Origin: a virus
Length of the DNA stretch: 32,518 bases
Reading direction: 5' to 3' (one strand)
IMG/VR virus record: IMGVR_UViG_3300030328_002624
Location: 19,514-52,031 of that record
Of the stretch, positions 3,133-32,500 are shown one piece after another. Both the position numbers and the translations under genes were made by a program. Below the pieces are notes generated by a model. It was not told the DNA's origin. It saw only the letters and a list, made by a program, of their open reading frames with translations, and searched no databases. Positions within the stretch are counted from its first letter, which is position 1, and each line of letters begins with the position of its first letter.

Positions 3133-4599
3133 TTATGCTGTAAAGTTTAGCACAGTGTGTGTTTCAGGAAGTGAAATCTCAAGACCTGCTTCTGTAAGAA
3201 CCATGTCTTTTCTTCCGTCTGTTGCATTACCTTGAACATTAGTCATAATCTGGGTGTCACGAGACTGCCCATTTGCTGCTAATGGTCTATAAGCAATGTT
3301 ATTTAGGTCTATAGCGATAGCCATATCATTCCAAGGACCTCTTAATAGAGGCTCTGCAATGAAATTAAGATTACCATATAATGTAGATACTCTAGTCACA
3401 TTATGACCAAAAGAACCTTTAACATTTTGGATATCCATTCCACTACCTGCCGCACTACTACCTGCTCCGAGATTTGACATAGTATTTCCTAAGAAACTAC
3501 TTCCACCTAGTTTATTCAACCAAGTTAAAACGCTTCTTGAAGCTAATACTAGTTTCTCTCCACTATTGCCCTTTTCAGGTGCAAATACTTCTTCCATTGA
3601 CTCAACGAAATGGTCATAGGTTGAAGATGATTTTGAGAACATACGCACTTGACCGTAAGCTTCGGTGTATGGTAAAATACCCCAAGTTTTACGTGATGGT
3701 GCATATCCAGCTGAAAATGTAGCATCGTCTGACGAGCCTACTCCAAATAACATAGCGTGTTCAATATCCATCTTATGTTCCATAAGTTTTTCTTTGTATA
3801 CACGCATGTATTCGTTAGCATCTCCTCTATAACGAGTAGCTAGTGATGTTCCTGAGAACATTGGTACTGCTGTTTTGAAGATTTGAGTATATCCTTCAGA
3901 ACTGTAGATTTCATCTCTCCAGCCTTTAGGGTCATCAGTTCCTTCAGCCCAGTTTGTACCTACAACTTGCCCTACAGCATCCACTACGAATTTAAGCTTA
4001 GACCCATTTGCAATAGTTCCACCTTCTGAAGGTACTTGACCTTTCTTAGTAGCTGCTTGTCCAGCAGTTCCTGTAGGTTTGTACATTGCTTTTAGGAATG
4101 TAGCTGCTATTGTAGCTTTGTTCGTTCCTAAAGTTGGGGCTGCACTTATTCTGTAGTATGCAGTAACATTAAAACCGTTAGTTGTATTGATAGCCCAATT
4201 AGAACCATCGACGGAATAAATTGCGTCAATTGCTATAACTTGCCCTTCCAATAAGAACTGTGGTTGTGAGCCTGCTGCTTCTCTACCGTATTTATCATAA
4301 CCGCAGTCTACTTCAAATGAAGCTGGTAATGCCCAGGCTGCACTTGAATATGCTGCTGTAACTTTTTCCGCTATTACGTCAAAGTTTCTACGTTGCCATT
4401 GATGTCTTTTTTCTAAAAATTTAAAAACAGGGTCATCTGTTGGTTTCTTAGCGACTTTTGACAAATAAGAGAAAAAAGGTGATTGTTCGGGTGCTAATTC
4501 GGCAATTCTCTCGCCGAAATTAAAGATTCTTCTTGAATCATTAATGGACACACCCTGTGGGCTTACGCCCGTGAGTTGACTTTGTATGTCTGTAGCCAT
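3133..4599 (-). CDS. Major capsid protein (SU10-like)
   Basis: 488 residues with an excellent AAGGAG site. It is the main shell protein. The N-terminus (RRIFNFGERIAELAPEQSPF) followed by PVFKFLEKRHQWQRRNF, the middle MDIEHAMLFGVGS, and the C-terminal sequence ending KDMVLTEAGLEISLPETHTV resemble the SU10-type (HK97-fold) capsid family; the E-loop and A-domain cannot be placed by eye. It follows a coiled-coil scaffold gene and precedes connectors, the standard order. A hairpin after the stop may protect the message. Main uncertainty is the exact capsid subfamily. Confidence 0.82.
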   Translation of the reverse strand: MATDIQSQLTGVSPQGVSINDSRRIFNFGERIAELAPEQSPFFSYLSKVAKKPTDDPVFKFLEKRHQWQRRNFDVIAEKVTAAYSSAAWALPASFEVDCGYDKYGREAAGSQPQFLLEGQVIAIDAIYSVDGSNWAINTTNGFNVTAYYRISAAPTLGTNKATIAATFLKAMYKPTGTAGQAATKKGQVPSEGGTIANGSKLKFVVDAVGQVVGTNWAEGTDDPKGWRDEIYSSEGYTQIFKTAVPMFSGTSLATRYRGDANEYMRVYKEKLMEHKMDIEHAMLFGVGSSDDATFSAGYAPSRKTWGILPYTEAYGQVRMFSKSSSTYDHFVESMEEVFAPEKGNSGEKLVLASRSVLTWLNKLGGSSFLGNTMSNLGAGSSAAGSGMDIQNVKGSFGHNVTRVSTLYGNLNFIAEPLLRGPWNDMAIAIDLNNIAYRPLAANGQSRDTQIMTNVQGNATDGRKDMVLTEAGLEISLPETHTVLNFTA

Positions 4600-10909: not shown

Positions 10910-10977
10910 ATATTAAAGTAAAGCCAATATTTGAAAAATACAACTAGAATGTGTGCACGTGATATATATGTATCCTA

Positions 10978-11377
10978 CCCCATACGGATATTCGTCGCTC
11001 GGACTAATTTTCGTTGAAAATTCGTCGTTCGAGCAACGCTCCAGGCATGCTGCCCCATGCACAACGGTGTTGAGCACGGGCATGCCTGTCGCTTCGCATC
11101 CACTACGGAGAGACACTCCGTAGTGAAGCGTTGCTCTTCCTCGCTGTGTGTCAACCTCCGATTAACGTCGGTAACACACAGACGCAAAACACGAAAGCCG
11201 AGGCTTGAGCACGCTCAACCCTGTCTTGCTCACGCTACGGCGTTGCCTTGACCGCTTGAGGAACAAAGGACCGAGCAAGACAGCGTCTTTCTTTTCAACT
11301 CATCGGTGTTCTTCCCTTCGGTCATCACACGTCTTATATTTTTTTAGTCCTCGCTCCTCACATATATCCGTATGGGG
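10978..11377 (+). ncRNA. Structured domain 1 (about 400 nt)
   Basis: Closed by CCCCATACGGATAT (10978-10991) pairing with 11364-11377, 14 perfect base pairs, backed by GGACT (11001-11005) with AGTCC (11346-11350). A three-way junction follows: GAGCAACGCT (11031-11040) with 11127-11136 encloses CAGGCATGC/GCATGCCTG (11042-11050, 11080-11088) and CACTACGGAG/CTCCGTAGTG (11101-11110, 11116-11125). Further helices: TGTGTGT/ACACACA (11145-11151, 11174-11180) and CTGTCTTGCTC/GAGCAAGACAG (11221-11231, 11273-11283). Open frames here are interrupted and lack ribosome binding sites, so it is read as non-coding. The strand is not determined by the domain itself. Confidence 0.6.
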
Positions 11378-11418
11378 GGACCCTTACCAAAAACCTTTAT
11401 ATTAATACCTTGCATCAT

Positions 11419-11507
11419 ACTGACTGCAAGTGTTCACATGCGATAAGCCCCAATCGCTATGGCGATTGCGATATCGCATTGTGTTCACACTTGACAAAGG
11501 AGTCAGT
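11419..11507 (+). promoter_or_regulatory. Long leader hairpin abutting a start codon
   Basis: Three stacked helices: ACTGACT (11419-11425) with AGTCAGT (11501-11507), CAAGTGT (11427-11433) with ACACTTG (11487-11493), and TGCGATA with TATCGCA. Their apex is a CCC/U hairpin. The AAAGGAG site (11496-11502) lies in the bulge and the 3' strand, and the last paired base precedes the ATG at 11508, so folding should restrict ribosome access. Confidence 0.55.
11439..11478 (+). promoter_or_regulatory. CCC/U hairpin, copy 1
   Basis: Outer helix TGCGATA/TATCGCA, internal loop AGCCC against CGA, inner helix CAATCGC/GCGATTG (11451-11457, 11462-11468), loop TATG. It differs from the majority copies in the upper two pairs, with both sides changed. 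It sits at the tip of the leader hairpin of a 42-codon frame. Confidence 0.65.
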
Positions 11508-11636
11508 ATGTTGCAACTATTTCGCCTTTTGATGAAAACGCCGTTTAGTTACTGGAAAGCAATTCTTGCTTGTCCAGATAACGAACCGTTGCATTTTCAT
11601 CATGACGGCTGTCCTTGCTGTTGGAGGAAATCATGA
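11508..11636 (+). CDS. Possible 42-residue Cys/His protein
   Basis: Frame starting MLQLFRLLMKTPFSYWKAIL and ending FHHDGCPCCWRKS. A canonical AAAGGAG lies five bases before the ATG and a terminator 48 bases after the stop. The C-terminal HFHHDGCPCCW cluster could bind a metal ion. The region is GC-richer than the early genes and its bases also form nested hairpins, so it may be a chance frame inside a structured RNA. The ideal ribosome binding site is the main argument for translation. Confidence 0.45.
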   Translation: MLQLFRLLMKTPFSYWKAILACPDNEPLHFHHDGCPCCWRKS

Positions 11637-11684
11637 GATTACCTCCAAGCAAAGTCATCAACGTGTTTTGACACGTTAATGAAA

Positions 11685-11722
11685 GAAATCCCCTACTATT
11701 CGTAGAGGATTTCTTTTTTTTT
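11685..11722 (+). terminator. Intrinsic terminator
   Basis: GAAATCC-C-CTAC (11685-11696), loop TATTC, GTAG-A-GGATTTC (11702-11713), then nine T (11714-11722). An 11-bp stem with one C/A mismatch followed by a pure T-run is a classic rho-independent terminator on the plus strand. Confidence 0.8.
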
Positions 11723-11865
11723 GCTAAAGGTTTTTGTCGCTAGATTTCTGGCTAGTGCCAAGAAAAGAACCTTCTTGTCACTATCCTTCTATCTGCTCTT
11801 CCTGTTTCGTCATCCTTACTCTTCCACTCTGCATACCGATACGCAACTTTTCTCAACGCACAGCC

Positions 11866-12028
11866 AGCCGTTCAAACGTTTTATCTCCCAGGGACTCCAG
11901 ACAAACGGCGAATAAACACTCCGTCAATTCCCCAATCGCTGTGGCGATAGGTATTGACGGATATTCGCCCGTTTGTCATTCCGTCCAACTGGGAGATTTT
12001 TCTATGGAAAATCAAACGTTTGACGGCT
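11866..12028 (+). promoter_or_regulatory. Leader hairpin that buries RBS and start codon
   Basis: Nested helices, outside in: 11866-11881 with 12014-12028 (one bulge), ATCTCCCAG (11883-11891) with CTGGGAGAT (11989-11997), GACAAACGGCGAATA (11900-11914) with 11962-11977 (one bulge), and CCGTCAAT with ATTGACGG. The GGGAG site (11991-11995) is fully paired and the ATG at 12004 sits in an internal loop. If folded, translation of the frame at 12004 should be off. Confidence 0.6.
11921..11960 (+). promoter_or_regulatory. CCC/U hairpin, copy 2
   Basis: Outer helix CCGTCAAT/ATTGACGG (11921-11928, 11953-11960), CCC on the 5' side, inner helix CAATCGC/GCGATAG (11933-11939, 11944-11950) with one A/A mismatch, loop TGTG. 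It forms the tip of the long leader hairpin before the 87-codon frame. Confidence 0.6.
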
Positions 12029-12267
12029 GCACTTTCATCGTTTTCTCTGGCGAGAAAACAGATGACGGCAAGGCTGTTATTGCGTTGAGAACCCGTCACG
12101 CCAACAGAGTTGGCTACGGGGCAGTTGCGTATCTCAAGTCTAAAGACTCTGTGACTCAAGTAGCAAGCTACTTGCAGTCAAGAGGTCTTGACTTGTATGC
12201 AAGAGGTCAGAGTAAGTCTGGCAACTCGCTACGCTTCGGCATCCTCAACATGAAAACCAAGGCATAA
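12004..12267 (+). CDS. Possible 87-residue protein in a structured RNA
   Basis: Starts MENQTFDGCTFIVFSGEKTD and ends RFGILNMKTKA. GGGAG lies eight bases before the ATG. The amino-acid make-up looks like a small alpha/beta protein (VIALRTRHANRVGYGAVAYL, then VTQVASYLQSRGLDLYARGQ), but no family is recognised. The same bases form perfect hairpins: 12040-12059 (loop TGGC), 12100-12114, 12157-12174 and 12176-12193. Composition is unlike the AT-rich early genes. Either a foreign gene with strong secondary structure or a non-coding RNA with a chance frame. A short terminator region follows. Confidence 0.5.
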   Translation: MENQTFDGCTFIVFSGEKTDDGKAVIALRTRHANRVGYGAVAYLKSKDSVTQVASYLQSRGLDLYARGQSKSGNSLRFGILNMKTKA

Positions 12268-12282
12268 ATGCCTAGGTTTTCG

Positions 12283-12368
12283 AAGAGCAGAAATGGATAG
12301 TGCCCCCTCACGTCTTCATCAAGTGAAAAAGAACGACTCGTCGTTCGGGGGGAAGGCTCTTTTTTTTT
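12283..12368 (+). terminator. Branched terminator-like structure
   Basis: AAGAGC (12283-12288) pairs with GCTCTT (12356-12361). Inside, CCCCC (about 12303-12307) can pair with GGGGGG (12347-12352), with hairpins CTCAC/GTGA and AACGA-CTCG-TCGTT. Nine T (12360-12368) follow. It probably ends a plus-strand transcript. The stem is longer and more branched than usual, so strength is uncertain. Confidence 0.5.
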
Positions 12369-12447
12369 GGCACTAGCATTTTTTTCTAATGTAGACAAAT
12401 CAAAGTAATGATTTGTCCGTCTTTCTTTTTCAGAAATCTAGCGACTC

Positions 12448-12510
12448 TTGCATTGTATTTTTGCAGGTTTTTGGACGGGTCCCACGGATACTGTTACCAA
12501 AAAAATGCAA
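12448..12510 (+). ncRNA. Structured domain 4 (63 nt)
   Basis: TTGCATT (12448-12454) and TTTTTGG (12468-12474) together pair with the unbroken right arm CCAAAAAAATGCAA (12497-12510), leaving a 13-base bulge on the left. The loop carries GGGTCC (12477-12482), complementary to GGACCC in the junction strand between domains 1 and 2. It is the smallest of the five adjoining domains. Confidence 0.45.
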
Positions 12511-12560
12511 CGGGGAAACTACCAAAAAACATATTGTTTGTATGACAGGATAAATTAGAC

Positions 12561-12645
12561 TCAACTAGTTTTCGGAACCTGATGACCTAGGGCTCCCCAA
12601 TCTCTCCGAGATTTGTTCGCTTTTTGAGTTCCGAAAACCAGTTGA
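12561..12645 (+). promoter_or_regulatory. CCC/U hairpin, copy 3, on an 18-bp stem
   Basis: TCAACTAGTTTTCGGAAC (12561-12578) pairs with 12628-12645 with a single G-U. The large loop holds CCCCAATCTC, loop TCC, and GAGATTTG (12595-12615), the consensus with one extra T. It is the first helix of domain 5, the same 5' position the element takes in domains 2 and 3. Confidence 0.65.
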
Positions 12646-13265
12646 TAGCGGTAAGTATGGTATGTTGAAAAGATTTGCAGGGGTTACTAGCGTAACCTCT
12701 GCTCAAAATTGGAATGAATGGCGAAAGTCCCAATACAATACCCAGGGGAAGCGTTCTGGGCATTCCATTAGTAGTATATATGACCTATTACCATTGACGC
12801 GCAATAACAGATAGGATTAACATGGGCTGTTGATAGGTCATATATATGTAAAGAATTTTTGTAAAGAATTTTAAGTTATTAATATGCAGTTAATACCTTA
12901 AAATGGTTTTAAACATTGTGAAAGAGGCTAGATAAGCCCTCTACAATGAGTTGTATAGTCCGATAGGACCTTGGGCGTATCAAATGATACGGATAAGCCA
13001 GCCAATAATGCTGGAATACAATGTTGTTTGAGTAACAAAGATAGGAGTTTATCCTACTTATATGCATAGTCAAAATGGTCAATTACTTGGAGCCATTCTA
13101 TGCCATATTTATCTGCTCAATGAATAGGTAGTCAGAGATGACATATCATGCCTATTTGAGAGTGCTCTGGTAAGAGTATAAATATGTAAGTAAACGTGTC
13201 TTCAGAGAAGATGACGTAAAATCTAACAAACATGAGAGTGATACCAAAACCTCTCTAAAACCACT

Positions 13266-13303
13266 TATATGAGGGAACTTACGTTCCCTTATATATTTTT
13301 TTT
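13266..13303 (+). terminator. Strong intrinsic terminator of domain 5
   Basis: TATATGAGGGAAC (13266-13278), loop TTAC, GTTCCCTTATATA (13283-13295), eight T (13296-13303). Thirteen base pairs with one G-U and a clean T-run. This fixes the plus strand and a likely 3' end for the ornate RNA near 13303. Confidence 0.9.
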
Positions 13304-13388
13304 GACAATATGTTTTTTTTGTAGTTTCAGATACATTATTGTCATATAACTTGTGTTACTTGTCTGTAAAATAACCTAAAACTTGTTC

Positions 13389-13432
13389 GGAATAACCTCC
13401 CCAATCTCTCCGAGATTGTTTCAGCAATTTCC
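13389..13432 (+). promoter_or_regulatory. CCC/U hairpin, copy 4
   Basis: CCCCAATCTCTCCGAGATTG at 13399-13418, one of four identical copies: seven-pair stem, TCC loop. The outer pairing is weaker than in other copies (GGAAT 13389-13393 with ATTTCC 13427-13432). It is the only copy followed by another structured RNA rather than directly by a ribosome binding site. Confidence 0.65.
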
Positions 13433-13449
13433 TTTTAGAGCAAAGACTT

Positions 13450-13563
13450 AAGAGAGATAATGTCATACGAGAATTCGTAGGTGTAATAGAGCATAGAATT
13501 ATGTTCAATAATGTTTCAACATTAAATATTGCTTCCCAAGTGACAAGGCCAATTATCTCTCTT
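13450..13563 (+). ncRNA. Three-armed structured leader
   Basis: AAGAGAGATAAT (13450-13461) pairs perfectly with 13552-13563, then GTCA (13462-13465) with TGAC (13541-13544). Three arms follow: TACGA-GAAT-TCGTA, GAGCATA-GAAT-TATGTTC (two arms sharing a GAAT loop) and AATAATGTT/AACATTAAATATT. The cloverleaf-like fold has no tRNA T- or anticodon-loop features. It lies in the leader of the 45-codon gene at 13619. Confidence 0.55.
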
Positions 13564-13571
13564 TAGAATTT

Positions 13572-26052: not shown

Positions 26053-26310
26053 ATGAAACCACTAAGAGATGAGATTATTGTAAAGAGAGATGCCAATGAA
26101 GAAAAAACAAAATCTGGTATTATCTTACAAGGCAATGATGATAATATAAAAACGACTGGAACAGTAATAGAAATAGGACCAGAGGTTAAAGAGCTAAAAA
26201 AGAAAGATAGAATTCTTTTTCACTCCCAACAGTATATTGTTCAAATGGTAGAAGGCAAAGAAATGATTTTTATGCCAGAAGGTTCTGTCCTAGCAATATT
26301 GGAGAAATAA
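26053..26310 (+). CDS. GroES-like co-chaperonin
   Basis: 85 residues, slightly short for GroES (about 95). Start MKPLRDEIIVKRDANEEKTK matches the GroES opening. SGIILQGND is the mobile loop whose hydrophobic triplet docks on GroEL. GTVIEIGPEVKELKKKDRIL and the ending EGSVLAILEK complete the beta barrel. It would replace the host co-chaperonin so that GroEL folds the phage capsid, as T4 gp31 does. Strong AAAGGAG site. Confidence 0.85.
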   Translation: MKPLRDEIIVKRDANEEKTKSGIILQGNDDNIKTTGTVIEIGPEVKELKKKDRILFHSQQYIVQMVEGKEMIFMPEGSVLAILEK

Positions 26311-26568: not shown

Positions 26569-29500
26569 TTATTGGTCAGATTGCTCTTCTTGAGGGTTAT
26601 TTGCATCAATTTGAGCCCTTCTTAAGCTATGAATCTTATGTAATGGTATTCCAGTCATAAAGTCTACTGCCATAGCTGGTGAATCAATAGTTCTTTTAAC
26701 GTCTCTAATCATTCTACCGAAAGGTAAATAACTATATCCATAGAATTGTTTCATTTTATCAAAATCTCCACTTAATATTGCACTTGTAGGTGCAAGCACT
26801 GTACGAGCAATAGGTGGCGTAACAATAGATAATGGAGCTAAAGCTGGATGCGGCCATTGACTAAAGAACGCACGTTCTCTATCTTTTTCATCTCCAAACA
26901 ACCATTGTGCAGTATCTTGTGCCCATGACATAGGTGGAGATAAAGCATATTCAAATATACTTGCTGTAAATATATAAGATAATGCCATTGACATCATATC
27001 CATTGTAAATTGTCTTCTGCCTTTTTCTGTAGCGTAAACATCTCTTTCCCATCCTGCTGCCTTTGCAACTTTATATATACCTTCTTTTGGTCCAAATCTT
27101 CTTCTTACACTATTCCAAGCATAAGGATGGAATCTTGTCATAACACGACCCATAGAGGTTTGAGAGTAATTAGAACGATGAGCAGCATGATACATGAATT
27201 GTGATGCTTCTACACCTTTAATAGCTCTTTGAACCAATTCTGGAGAGTTCCATTCTATAAAATCTAATGGAGAATGTTCCATTCCAGTTTTTAATAGTTC
27301 TCTAGCATTCAAATAATGAGCTAGGAATGAACGAGTACGTAATTGATATTCAGACCATGACATAAACGAAGCACCAGCTTTGAACACTCCTTGCCCTATA
27401 CCACGTTCTCTTCTAACTTCAAGTAATGTCATATCCATAGCCTTATGCCATTCAGCTTTGTTCATTGAACCTATTTTACCTTTATTTTTTGAGAAGAATT
27501 TATGAGCAACTTCAGTTGCAAACGTTTTAGCTTTACCTTTACGTAAAGCTCTATCTAATCCAATCTCTGTTATGAACATACCTTCTAATGCACCAGTACT
27601 TTCAATCCAGTCTAATATATCTTCATAGTTTTTAATAGTTTTCTCTACCTTATTTCCTTTAGAATCAATACCTTCAAATCTTTTATTCTTCATACCTACT
27701 TGATTTAGCAGATAATCTTCTCCACCAAATTTAGTAGCACGATATATATTCATAGCACCTACATCTGCATATAAATTTTGACCACCACCCAAGAAATTGG
27801 TAATAGTTGTTTTAGGGTGAGATAATAATGAAATAAGCTCAAATTTAGCTTCCCAGGCACTAAATGCTTGTAATTTTTTAGATAATAGCAATCGTCTATT
27901 TCTTAAGTTGCTCGTAGGTATATCTTTAGTAAACCAAGGCTTAAATCCTGTCATATCTTCAAAACGCATTGCCATACCTGTCCAAGCTTCATCACTTACC
28001 AAGGTATAAGCCAATTTAAATTTACCTATCTTATCTATATTTTTAGGGTCTGCTAATTCCTTAGCGTTTTTCATTCTAAGCTTATGCAATTCTTTTTCTA
28101 CTCTTTGTTTATTTTTAGGATACTTATTTTCTATAATACGTCTGTCTATTCTATCTGGTTCTATATGGTCAGCTACATCCTGAAGAAATCTTTTTTGATG
28201 CCCTTGAAGCACCTTCCAGTTATTATTAACTGCATTTCTATCTAAATCATTTTCAATAAACTTACCCAAAAGCTCTACTTCACCCTTTTTAATACCATGG
28301 AGGTCTAAACTTCTCAAGGAAGCATATCCTAACATATTTGAGGCAGCATCTTTAATATAAGAACTCCAATTGTCAGTAAATTCTCCAAAAGGTCTAGTCT
28401 TATCAAAGTGTTTTATATGAGTATTCATTCTAAATCCAGCGTTTATATCAAAGAAGTTTTTAGATATAGCTCCAGAATAGCTTTCAATAGCTTTTAAATC
28501 TGTTTTCCAGAAAGGAAGGAATGCCTCTGACCTACTCTTTAAATTTCCTGCAGTATAATCTCCAGCAAAACTTTTCTTTCTTGACCTTAAAAGTTCAGTA
28601 ACGGAATTATAGTTATCCAAGCTTTCATTGAAAATAGAAGAACCCTGACGCATTTCTAGTTCTTCTTTAACTCTAAGCTTATAATCCATTCTAGCTTCCT
28701 GTAATGTAATCTGACCATTAAAATACTTATCTCTTAAGTCTGCTGGTAGTTCTTTTGCTGGTATTTTTCCAGCTATCTCAATAATTTCATTCATCCATTC
28801 AGCCAGCTTTTCTCTTTTAGCTTTTGTTTCAAAGTGACCTAATTGAGGAAAGTAATTACTGGACCTACCATCTTTACCTACAAATTGCCCAACTTTATGA
28901 ACCCCTAATGGATTATTCTTTTTATATTCTTTAATAAATGACTGTATTTCCTTATCTGAAGCATTTTTCTTAAGCTGTCTTTGGGCTGCATCCTTCATTT
29001 CTAAATGGTATTTAAAATATAAGACATCATTTATGGAAGGTAAACTATCTACAGTTTTTTGAGTTGTTTCTGTTATAAATTCAATACCTCTATATAACGA
29101 ATCAACTTTCTTCTCACTTATAAAGCCATCTTTATTTAAAAACATTTCATTTAACGATAGAACCCATTTACTATCTTTGTTTTCTTTGATATCATAGGCA
29201 TTATTCACATATTCGTTTTCAAACCCGTTTTTTTGTAAAATAACCTTAAAAGGATTCGTCTTATCCGTAACCTTACTCTGAACTAATCTTGTATTTATAT
29301 CGGTCAAATATTCAGTAATAGTATTATCTATCATCTTTTTAAATTCTTTAAGAGTAACTGTTTTATCTGCACCATTTTTACCTATACCAACTAAATGATA
29401 CTTTTTATCTCCCAAGTCCTTTAAGTTTTGTTGACTGATTTCATATTGTTGCTCAACATACTCTTTTGATTTTCCTTCCATTATCTTTTTCAGATAAGTT

Positions 29501-32500
29501 CTATTAGAGCTTGTTCTTTTTCTACGCCTACTGTTGGTTTTAATTCTTTTAGTTTTTTCCCAGGTTACAGCATCAAAAATGATTTCAAAGTCTTTCATAA
29601 CTTCAGGGTCGTCTGTGTCAATATAGTCAAATAAACCTTTCAATCTTTTTTCCATATACTCATTGTAGGCAGAACTAATTCTATGGAAAGAGTCTGCAGT
29701 TTGTCTTACCATTTCTAACGTACTTGTAGGAACTTCCAGTGAGTATGTTTTCAACTTACCATCATCACCAATTAACTTAGCATCTGGCATGAATTGCATC
29801 TTTTTCTCAAATGGTATTAAATCTTCTGCCACTCTTTTAAATAAAGATAAGTTTGACCAATTCCCTAATTTTGGAGGAACTTTTTTCAATTCTAATACAT
29901 GCATTTCTTTACCATTATTGATATAGTCTTTTTCTTGCTTATATTTCAATATAGGATTACCGTCTTTGTCAATTTCCCATCCTTCTGATTTAATAATATC
30001 TGATAAGTCTTTTTTATCAAACTTACCTAAGCCCCTATCTATTACATTGTAATAATCTTTTCCAATCTTTACTATTATTTCTGATTTTCCAGGTTCAAAC
30101 CAATGTTCCTTCATCCATTCTGCAGTTCTTATAGTTGTAGTTTTTAATCCTTCAGAAACCTTTTCTCTGTTTTTAGTATCAAAACCGTCTTTTTTACCTC
30201 CAAACTGTATACGAGCATCTTCTCTTTTAACTATATTAAGAAGACCTTCTACTTTTCTTACTATATTTCCTCTATCAAAATATCTCATATTAAGATAATC
30301 GTTAAACATTGCTAAATCATTTGTTGTCATATTACCAAAAGACTGTCTAAAACCTTTAAATGCTTCCATAGCAGAACCAAATTCAACCTCTAATACCTCA
30401 GATAACTCTGGATTAGCTCTTACAAATTTAGACAATCTAAGTAATTCTTTTTCACCTCTAGTTGTAACAACTGTGAATCCAAACTTCTTGATAAGTTCTT
30501 GCATACGATATTCTTTGAATTTTGGAAACTCTGGAGTTTGTCCTTTCTTTGGTTTTTTAGGAGTACCAGGGAGTTCTTCTTTTTCTGGTTTAGTAGTTTC
30601 TTCTTTTTCTGGTTTAGTAGTTTCTTCTTTAACTTTCTCTGGCTTAACAGACTCTTCTTTAATCTTCTCTGGCTTAGAAACGTCTTCTTTAACAATTTCT
30701 TCTACAACAATCTTATCTAGAACTTCTTCTTCAACTTCAATAGCTTTTTTCTCAGGAGTGTTTCGTTTTTTCTCTCTAGCTGGTTTTTTAGCTTCTTCAA
30801 CTATTTGTTCAATAGCTTCAACTCTGTTTAAACTTTTAGCTATTCCTGGAAGCTCTTTAGAGGATGTGGTTAAATCCATTGCGTTTGCTCTATCTAATAC
30901 ATTCTGTAAAAATCCAAAATATTCTTTTCTATTCTTATGGCTAACAACACTACTTTTCATTAAATGGTCAACACGAGGTCTCATTTTATTTATAACTTTT
31001 CCTCTCATAGTATAAAGCTGCGACAAAGTTAAGTCAGGAGAAGGTTGAGGGTCGGCGCCTTCTTCTTTTACCCAGTCTAATTCTCTATATTTATCAAGAC
31101 CTTTAACCTTTCCTTCATACCCCGCTCCCTCATTTAGAATAGTTTCATTTATAACTTTATTTATAGTATTCAATTCAGCAATATGTTTTTCTTGTTTAGC
31201 CTTAAGAGCTTGATTGTTTCCTCTTTGTAATATAGGATTTGTCATCATCCACGCATCATAAACTCCCTCTGCTAGCTTCCCTGGTTCACTATCTCTTTCC
31301 CATCCTAGATGTTTTTTAAAGTTAGAAAGCCATTTGTTTTTAGATAAAGCAAATAACTGCTGTATATCAACACTGTCAGGTTGATTGTTTAGAACTTTAT
31401 CAGCAGAAGATTTATTACTAAAACCTTCTTTTTGAACCCTATCTGCTCTTTCTTGAGAGTCTTGCTTTATAGAAAAAGTTTCTTTCATCACTTGTCTAAT
31501 CATTTTATGAGCATCTGACGGAGTAACTCCTCTTGAAACTAATTCATTGACTAGTGCTTGTGATTTGGACATAGCATAGCTCATACTTATCATATCTGTT
31601 GCAGCATCCCAAAATAATTCTTCTGAATTTTTTAAAGCTTTACCCTTTAATGGAATCATTTTACCTTCTTTATTCCTTTTAATTCCATAGAGAGCATCCA
31701 ATTCTTTTGGATTCAAAACAGCTTCATAAGGGAAGTATATTTCTAACTCTTTATATAACGGATTAGACTGATTCTCTTTAGCTATAGCGCTAGCTAATTG
31801 ATAAATCTTGGTCTTATTATAATGATTAAAAGGACTAATATCTATTTCAATTTCTGCAAATATTTCTGCTAAACTTGTATAAAAATTACCAGTATTCATA
31901 TGACTTCTTCTGTCATGTGCTCTTCTTGCGTCTGTTCCACCTTCTAAATAATATTCTGCTATCTTTCGAGCTGATTCTGGTGTTGTAAAACTTTTAGTTG
32001 AGCCAAATAAAGAATCATGGAAATCTTTCATAACTCTTAATCCTTGAAACCCTTTGTTTGTACCAGTGCTAAACATCTTATGGAACATAAATTCTGCTGG
32101 AGCATCTTTGACTAACTCTACCTTTCCAGTCTTTTTGTTTGTTCCATATATATCAAAATACTTATGGAAAGCTTTAGTTGTTGAAGGTCCAGCGTGTCCA
32201 GCTCTTGCATAATCAGCTGAATCTGCAGCTACGTTAATTCCATTATAGCCATCTTTTACTATGGTCATAAAATCTAAGCCATCTTTTACTGCTACATAAA
32301 AATTATCGTATTCTCCTTTAATCTTTACATATGCTTTTGGTTGCTTTTTCTGCCATTTCTTTTTCTTGGGAGCTCTTGTTGCAGCCCAATCTCCTAGGTC
32401 ATATAAATTCTTTCCTTCTATTACGCTTCTACTTCCATTGGTTTGTATCGTATCATATAGCCATTGCATTCTAGTATAGGCATTTACAACAATACCCATA

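What the first reader, a model, noticed from the sequence alone, without database searches (positions are those of the whole stretch)
10968..13336. Five adjoining long-range domains around one junction: a possible 2.4-kb giant phage RNA
Seen directly: five inverted repeats of 11-20 bp, each with unrelated sequence, tile the block end to end (10978-11377, 11388-11736, 11736-12445, 12448-12510, 12518-13325). Junction strands between them are 0-10 bases. A 7-bp pair (10968-10974 with 13330-13336) lies at the outer edges of the first and last domain. Different arms in every domain argue against a transposon family. Tiling with so little slack looks like the central multihelix junction of a large folded RNA. 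Internal terminator-like T-runs are the main problem for a single transcript.
Basis: partly seen in the sequence, partly recalled or inferred. Interest (0 to 1): 0.93.

Follow-up and report, generated by a model that had tools for sequence, protein, structure and literature searches.

The report
Phage early transcript of self-closed domains
Just behind the main early-promoter-like site of an uncultivated phage lies a 2.4-kb stretch built from adjoining self-closing domains, one of which folds a small gene's leader back along the gene itself; three related phages keep this layout while changing nearly all of the pairing sequences, so the folding is clearly selected, but what it does is unknown.

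Summary
Long-range perfect inverted repeats in 10950-13350 number 9 against 0.33 expected. Unconstrained folding recovers the arms of domains 1, 3 and 5 and the outer pair (P>0.9). Domain 2's arm forms only when that domain is folded alone, because a helix enclosing domains 2+3 takes its 5' strand. Domain 4 is not supported.

Two related phages (L019, L020) keep the tiling with different, mutually orthogonal, fully compensated arms and a different number of units. Domain 3 is the mRNA of the first early gene (87 aa). In all three phages its whole 5' UTR folds back along the coding sequence. Cognate leader-CDS pairs interact at -37 to -44 kcal/mol, against -8 to -22 for swapped pairs.

It is therefore not one giant non-coding RNA but the structured start of the early transcript: a non-coding leader, small units, a zipped mRNA and an ordinary-looking ncRNA (domain 5). 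Domains 1-3 have an odd signature: 1-4% G.U pairs (10-16% in known E. coli RNAs), antisense folds at least as stable, and loops poor in G and rich in pyrimidine. So the fold was selected for maximal Watson-Crick pairing, or it acts partly as DNA. No Rfam family matches. Function is inferred: fold insulation, end protection and gated translation.

The parts
10933..10967 (+). conserved promoter-like element AAAAATNCAASTAGAATGTGYGYRCGTGRTATATA directly upstream of the block; a single copy in the 52-kb genome
   Evidence: found in 23 stretches of viral contigs at the same place, in front of the leader and gene 1; a shorter core of it matches once in the own genome
10968..10974 (+). 5' strand of the outermost pair (ATGTATC); in L019/L020 the same strand closes domain 1
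   Evidence: P=0.98 with 13330-13336; L019 ATGTATCC/GGATACAT, L020 ATGTATGCTAC/GTAGCATACAT
10978..11377 (+). domain 1: non-coding leader, about 400 nt, closed by CCCCATACGGATAT/ATATCCGTATGGGG plus GGACTAA/TTAGTCC
   Evidence: MFE z -6.1; P 0.96; 17 of 86 consensus pairs with both-sided changes in 3 phages
11377..11396 (+).
   Evidence: P=0.94; L019 CAAAAGGC/GCCTTTTG P=0.98; L020 CCAAAAGGCT/AGCCTTTTGG is present but P=0.002 in its fold
11388..11736 (+). domain 2: unit with nested CCC-bulge hairpin, possible 42-aa ORF behind AAAGGAG, terminator-like hairpin and T9; its arm closes only when folded alone
   Evidence: z -12.5; arm P=0.98 alone, 0.04 in context
11448..11468 (+). CCC-bulge hairpin CCCCAATCGC-tatg-GCGATTG
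   Evidence: 10 CCCCAATC on the + strand and 0 on the - strand against 0.32 expected
11507..11635 (+). possible 42-aa ORF (MLQLFRLLMK...CWRKS); no Pfam or PHROG match and no counterpart in L019/L020, coding uncertain
11682..11722 (+). terminator-like hairpin plus T9 just inside the 3' arm of domain 2
11736..12445 (+). domain 3: mRNA of gene 1 folded as a rod, closed by P1 (15 bp) and abutting P2; 5' UTR paired along the CDS and 3' UTR
   Evidence: MFE -327.8, z -22.9; same fold in L019/L020; swap test; P1/P2 fully compensated in three phages
11930..11948 (+). CCC-bulge hairpin at the tip of the gene-1 leader (CCCCAATCGC-tgtg-GCGAT)
12004..12267 (+). gene 1: 87-aa protein of unknown function, inside domain 3
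   Evidence: 74% and 66-69% identical in L019/L020; changes 19/15/35 by codon position; no Pfam or PHROG match
12303..12368 (+). conserved terminator-like hairpin of gene 1 plus T9, directly followed by the 3' strand of P2
   Evidence: sequence alignment with L019/L020
12465..12483 (+).
   Evidence: P=0.94
12515..13328 (+). domain 5: non-coding RNA of about 810 nt with CCC-bulge hairpin (12561-12645), terminator-like hairpin-T8 and closing arms; looks like an ordinary RNA
   Evidence: P 0.93-1.0, z -8.0, G.U 10.3%, A-rich loops
13330..13336 (+). 3' strand of the outermost pair (GATACAT)
   Evidence: P=0.98; position specific to this phage

Best explanation
The block is the structured 5' part of the phage's rightward early transcript, built as a chain of self-closed domains rather than one ornate RNA. 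SHOWN (sequence and computation): each domain's ends are joined by a private, almost purely Watson-Crick helix; the arms differ between domains and between phages but stay matched; the first early gene (87 aa) sits in a rod in which its own 5' UTR lies antisense along its coding sequence and 3' UTR; a hairpin-T8 stands just inside the 3' arm of domains 2, 3 and 5 and of the units and domain 3 of the relatives; and a CCC-bulge hairpin recurs in the units and upstream of several early genes. INFERRED: private closing helices make every unit fold on its own, in the order it is transcribed, and leave no loose RNA ends. Gene 1's start region lies at the fork of the rod and its Shine-Dalgarno is paired in two of three phages, so translation would compete with zipping: it would be possible on the nascent, ribosome-covered mRNA and shut once the rod closes. 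The result would be a nuclease-resistant, translationally gated early mRNA flanked by insulated ncRNAs.
For: Enrichment 9 against 0.33 and 8 against 0.23. Closing helices recovered without constraint in three phages. P1/P2 compensated in all three: GTCGCTAGATTTCTG, GTGGTTTTCTG, GTGGTTTTCGTG and GCTAGTGCCAA, GCAAAGATACAA, GCAAAGACGGAA, each with a perfect partner. Arms orthogonal within each phage, cognate mean -21/-16/-16 against non-cognate -4/-3/-3 kcal/mol. Leader-CDS interaction cognate -43.8/-37.4/-44.0, swapped -7.9 to -21.9, shuffled leaders -6 to -10 (sd about 3), synonymous-shuffled CDS -12 to -19.5. 5/12/18 both-sided against 2/1/3 one-sided changes in leader-CDS pairs. Leader-before-gene-1 layout in 20+ relatives, with significantly structured leaders in most of the distinct ones tested. 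Shine-Dalgarno paired in W and L019.
Against: No transcript data; the host is unknown. Terminator-like hairpins stand before gene 1 and would cut the transcript unless read through; one alternative, internal promoters, was not excluded (one search lists only chance-level matches). Domains 1-3 lack what a functional RNA usually shows: G.U 0.8-4%, antisense as stable or more so, loops only 9% G and 65% pyrimidine, so the selected molecule may not be the + strand RNA alone. The more distant relatives have no leader-CDS pairing. Only three phages carry the full layout.
Confidence: 0.42

Rival explanations
1. Processing-stem model: one long early precursor whose closing helices are cut by an RNase III-like enzyme, releasing gene-1 mRNA and ncRNAs as 16S and 23S are released from an rRNA precursor; arms are private so that the right ends meet.
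For: Unit-specific long-range arms that abut with 0-10 nt between them; contiguous P1+P2 of 23-26 bp in domain 3 of all three phages; orthogonality; coding and non-coding contents alike.
Against: Several closing helices are only 11-14 bp; hairpin-T8 inside each domain would more simply make 3' ends; no cleavage data.
Confidence: 0.15
2. The sequence acts as DNA: single-stranded or cruciform DNA of this region folds (replication, packaging or transcription start), and the RNA fold is a by-product.
For: Almost no G.U pairs in domains 1-3 of three phages while E. coli RNAs have 10-16% and shuffles 11-12%; antisense folds equal or better; both-sided changes dominate. The block lies between the head genes (terminase, portal, capsid) and the early genes.
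Against: Gene 1 and its SD are inside the fold; the leader is by position the 5' UTR of gene 1 in all relatives; domain 5 looks like ordinary RNA (G.U 10%, A-rich loops); a selection for maximal RNA stability would also purge G.U.
Confidence: 0.17
3. Antitermination/attenuation array: the leader and the CCC-bulge hairpins modify RNA polymerase (like put or nut sites) so that it reads through the hairpin-T8 terminators that stand before gene 1 and the early genes.
For: Terminator-like hairpins lie between the only promoter-like element and gene 1 in all three phages; a CCC-bulge hairpin precedes each of them, and CCCCAATC recurs 10 times on the + strand only; put-type cis-acting antitermination is established in HK022 (PMC9378689).
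Against: The motif also sits just upstream of Shine-Dalgarno sequences far from terminators, and is absent from the other relatives; it does not explain the leader-CDS zipper; no structural match to put.
Confidence: 0.12
4. One reading: one 2.4-kb RNA forming a compact multi-helix particle like GOLLD or ROOL.
For: Full-length fold closes with the outer 7-bp pair (P 0.98) and three domains.
Against: Contains an mRNA; number and identity of units differ in each relative; the outer pair is not conserved; no Rfam match.
Confidence: 0.06
5. Non-adaptive: template switching during replication keeps making and repairing inverted repeats here.
For: Would give purely Watson-Crick arms and one-step double changes without G.U intermediates (pattern seen).
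Against: No such repeats elsewhere in the window; would not build a collinear 250-nt rod along a CDS in three phages, nor G-poor loops, nor z of -23.
Confidence: 0.05

Closest known systems
GOLLD and ROOL large ornate phage RNAs (PMC12286853)
   Same: large, phage-encoded, elaborate secondary structure, function unknown; domain 5 is of similar size (about 810 nt)
   Different: no Rfam match even at E=10; not near tRNAs; here several closed domains in series, one of them an mRNA; private arms that turn over between relatives
HK022 put RNA (PMC9378689)
   Same: structured RNA immediately downstream of a phage early promoter and upstream of terminators
   Different: put is about 70 nt with two stem-loops; domain 1 is about 400 nt closed by its own ends
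rRNA-operon processing stems (own knowledge)
   Same: each unit flanked by its own long-range inverted repeat in one precursor
   Different: units here are a small mRNA and novel ncRNAs; no cleavage evidence; hairpin-T8 inside each unit
Rod-like RNAs such as hepatitis delta virus and Obelisks (own knowledge)
   Same: about 73-77% of nucleotides paired, a small ORF buried in the rod, few wobble pairs so both polarities fold
   Different: DNA-encoded in a dsDNA phage, linear as far as known, no replication or ribozyme evidence, no Rfam ribozyme
5'-UTR stem-loops that protect or gate phage and bacterial mRNAs (own knowledge)
   Same: 5' end engaged in a helix; SD paired
   Different: the whole CDS and 3' UTR take part, with the leader co-evolving with the codons

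Membership tests
GOLLD/ROOL/OLE and other Rfam RNA families | match to the family covariance model | tested here: not met
   no match at gathering score in the window or in nine relatives; nothing credible up to E=10 in the block
GOLLD/ROOL | homo-oligomeric RNA-only particle | not testable with these tools
   needs cryo-EM or native gels
GOLLD/ROOL | location near tRNA islands | tested here: not met
   no tRNA in the window nor in nine relatives
HK022-type put antiterminator | about 70 nt, two stem-loops | tested here: not met
   domain 1 is a multi-branched fold of about 400 nt; put described in PMC9378689
HK022-type put antiterminator | makes RNA polymerase read through terminators | not testable with these tools
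   needs in vitro transcription
transposon/MITE family | shared terminal inverted repeats among copies | tested here: not met
   arms are unrelated and orthogonal
rRNA-like processing stems | unit-specific long-range closing helix, compensated between relatives | tested here: met
rRNA-like processing stems | RNase III cleavage within the stems | not testable with these tools
   needs end mapping
Obelisk/HDV/viroid-like rod RNAs | rod fold with high self-pairing and an ORF | tested here: met
   domain 3: 260 pairs in 710 nt, 258 in 698, 281 in 730
Obelisk/HDV/viroid-like rod RNAs | circular RNA replicating through RNA | not tested
   the locus is phage DNA with ordinary phage gene layout; no ribozyme family found by Rfam
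protein-coding gene (gene 1) | conserved ORF with codon-like substitution pattern | tested here: met
   74% and 66-69% identity, length changes only in whole codons, third positions most variable

The most novel reading that the evidence does not exclude
A previously undescribed kind of genetic element: a tandem array of mutually orthogonal, strictly Watson-Crick-closed domains at the head of a phage early transcript, in which an mRNA's 5' UTR evolves as an antisense zipper of its own coding sequence, with a fold that would serve both polarities (as DNA or as both RNA strands).
Probability: 0.3. Interest if true: 0.93.

Novelty: categorically new. Interest (0 to 1): 0.82.

Why it matters
The nearest described cases I know are single structured RNAs or single regulatory hairpins. 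Here a phage lineage keeps a whole chain of insulated folds while replacing nearly every paired base, and co-evolves the leader of a gene with the codons of that gene. If it acts as RNA, it is a natural example of domain-by-domain folding with orthogonal closing helices and of an mRNA zipped by its own leader. The near absence of G.U pairs and the pyrimidine-rich, G-poor loops give a directly testable puzzle: RNA, DNA, or both strands. Many relatives exist in public metagenomes, so the question can be followed by comparison.

Tried and rejected
Chance or AT-richness: rejected by shuffles and by the other slices of the window. Transposon or repeat family: rejected, arms unrelated. Known RNA family: none. 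tRNA or tmRNA: none. Leader-CDS zipper as a general feature of the family: rejected, present only in the window phage, L019 and L020. Leader as a decayed inverted copy of the CDS: unlikely, because decay by transitions would leave many G.U pairs and 4 of 260 are seen. Phage-encoded T7-type RNA polymerase: no match in the own genome, but the control search also rang nowhere, so this is uninformative. Host: no match in genome contigs by promoter element or terminase, and only remote terminase relatives among isolates. AlphaFold2 of the gene-1 protein: pLDDT 57, not used further. More copies of domain 1 or of the CCC-bulge hairpin in viral contigs: only the same two relatives. Hammerhead-like CTGATGA at 12579: looked at by eye, no catalytic core.
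Full report
WHERE IT IS. The window is bases 19514-52031 of a 52-kb uncultivated virus record. Leftward genes encode a terminase, a P22-like portal and an SU10-like major capsid protein. Rightward genes include a DnaB-like helicase/primase. The block lies between the two sets. No DNA relative is found among isolated phages, the terminase is under 26% identical to any isolate in the listed matches, and no bacterial genome contig holds a relative, so the host is unknown.

THE OBSERVATION. In 10950-13350 there are 9 perfect long-range inverted repeats of 11 bp or more against 0.33 expected, and 8 strong ones against 0.23. Other 2.4-kb slices have 0-2. Folding the 2.4 kb without constraint gives pairing probabilities above 0.9 for the arms of domains 1, 3 and 5 and for the outer 7-bp pair. 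It gives 0.11 for the arm of domain 2 and 0.01 for domain 4. Domain 2's arm forms at P=0.98 when the domain is folded alone, but in context its 5' strand pairs with 12465-12474, flanked by 11377-11383/12477-12483, closing domains 2 and 3 together. The two helices share a strand, so the change would come as the downstream strand is made. MFE z-scores are -6.1, -12.5, -22.9 and -8.0 for domains 1, 2, 3 and 5.

RELATIVES. A 35-nt promoter-like element just upstream of domain 1 was found in 23 stretches of viral contigs, always followed by a leader and a small first gene. Two contigs, L019 and L020, share the 87-aa protein and the whole layout. In them the domain-1 leader is closed by ATGTATCC/GGATACAT or ATGTATGCTAC/GTAGCATACAT and further helices; with the window, 17 of 86 consensus pairs have changed on both sides. 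In place of domain 2, L020 has one unit (GTATCCGACTGCAA/TTGCAGTCGGATAC). L019 has three (AGTTCCCAACTGCA, TAGTTCATCTGCAA and CATTTATCTGC, each with a perfect partner), the first two enclosed by TTATACCTTGC/GCAAGGTATAA. All of these form at P>0.93 in the full fold. Within one phage, arms hardly pair with the arms of other domains. So number, sequence and content of the units turn over while the principle stays.

DOMAIN 3 IS A ZIPPED mRNA. The ORF 12004-12267 is conserved as protein (74% and 66-69% identity), with 19/15/35 differences by codon position between the window and L019. The surrounding domain is closed by P1 and an abutting P2 whose sequences differ in all three phages and always match. 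Inside, the 5' UTR (268, 292 and 322 nt) folds back along the CDS and 3' UTR in all three. The leaders are not alignable, yet each fits its own CDS: interaction energies are -43.8, -37.4 and -44.0 kcal/mol for cognate pairs, -7.9 to -21.9 for the six swaps, -6 to -10 for shuffled leaders, and -12 to -19.5 after shuffling synonymous codons. Of the CDS positions paired to the leader in two phages, 5, 12 and 18 have both partners changed and only 2, 1 and 3 one partner. The Shine-Dalgarno is paired in the window phage and in L019. More distant relatives have significantly structured leaders in most cases (z down to -10.5) but no leader-CDS pairing.

AN ODD SIGNATURE. In domains 1-3 of the window phage and L019, G.U makes up 0.8-4% of predicted pairs (L020 1.7-2.5%, its unit 6%), against 10-16% in E. 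coli RNase P RNA, 6S, tmRNA and 16S computed the same way, and 11-12% in shuffles. The antisense strand folds as well or better in nearly all of them, while for the E. coli RNAs the sense strand is always better. Unpaired positions are about 26% A, 28% C, 9% G and 37% T, where E. coli RNAs have over 40% A and 18-28% G. Domain 5 looks like an ordinary RNA on both counts (G.U 10.3%, unpaired A 43%). Either domains 1-3 were selected for maximal stability with few competing folds, or the complementarity also matters in DNA or in both strands. The data do not decide.

TERMINATORS AND THE CCC-BULGE HAIRPIN. Domains 2, 3 and 5, and the units and domain 3 of L019 and L020, have a helix followed by T7-T9 and then, at once or within about 20 nt, the 3' arm; domain 1 has a T5-T7 run in front of its 3' strands. 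Four of the five T>=8 runs on the + strand of the window lie here. Such signals stand before gene 1, so read-through or internal starts are needed for its expression. A hairpin with a 5' CCC bulge and a stem starting CA/UG recurs: CCCCAATC occurs ten times on the + strand, never on the other, 0.32 expected. Nine of the ten are in the block or upstream of early genes. The stem varies with compensation and the loop varies freely. It is missing from the other relatives.

INTERPRETATION. Best supported: the block is the structured head of the early transcript, a chain of independently closing domains. Private arms let each unit fold alone and in order and leave no free ends; in domain 3 the fold also hides the mRNA. 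That the arms and the zipper are selected is shown. That they protect, insulate and gate translation is inferred. The last is the weakest of the functional ones, because one domain is an mRNA and the units are exchanged between relatives.

KNOWN KINDS. No Rfam family matches the block or nine relatives. It resembles rRNA precursors in its private stems, rod-like RNAs in its fold, and put leaders in its place, but fails or cannot be tested on the features that define each (see membership table). Eight literature searches found no described counterpart; the library is incomplete, so this is weak evidence.

Noticed in passing
window 10269, 11448, 11930, 12595, 13399, 13577, 14251, 16392, 18241, 19881 (+): CCCCAATC with a covarying stem (CCC bulge, CAATC...GATTG) recurs upstream of early genes on one strand only; only the window phage, L019 and L020 have it.
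   Followed up: partly
window 13390-13571; L019 6713-6900; L020 6756-6870: Another closed ncRNA next to the block: CCC-bulge hairpin, changing closing helix (AAGAGAGATAAT/ATTATCTCTCTT; L019 ATTATAGAGTATAAGT/ACTTATACTCTATAAT) and a conserved core GAGCATAGAATTATG shared by the window and L019.
   Followed up: partly
L024, L039, L040 about 0.9-1.6 kb downstream of the promoter-like element: A closed cassette with a tRNA T-arm-like GGGTTCGAATCCC inside; interior conserved, closing arms exchanged in L040; absent from L023, where the site reads as empty between direct repeats AGAATTACA. ARAGORN finds no tRNA.
   Followed up: partly
L017 about 3980-4310 (- strand of the locus): Two tandem closed ncRNAs with private arms (TTTGTACTGAAT/ATTCAGTACAAA and TTGTACATCTAAAG/CTTTAGATGTACAA) in a distant relative: the tiling principle occurs there too.
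   Followed up: no
L032 gene 1; also L039, L025, L040: The gene-1 coding sequence itself is strongly structured (z -10.4, -6.9, -6.7, -6.3) without help from the leader.
   Followed up: no
relatives L009, L013, L022-L043 after gene 1: A second recurrent element, often a hairpin followed by TTTAATACCCTACA(A) with a short stem TACAC..GTGTA in some; the window has TATTAATACCTTGCA at 11398-11413.
   Followed up: no
window 26053-26310 (+): Phage-encoded GroES-like co-chaperonin (Cpn10, E 7e-15).
   Followed up: no
window 26569-32499 (-): A 1976-aa protein without any Pfam or PHROG match.
   Followed up: no
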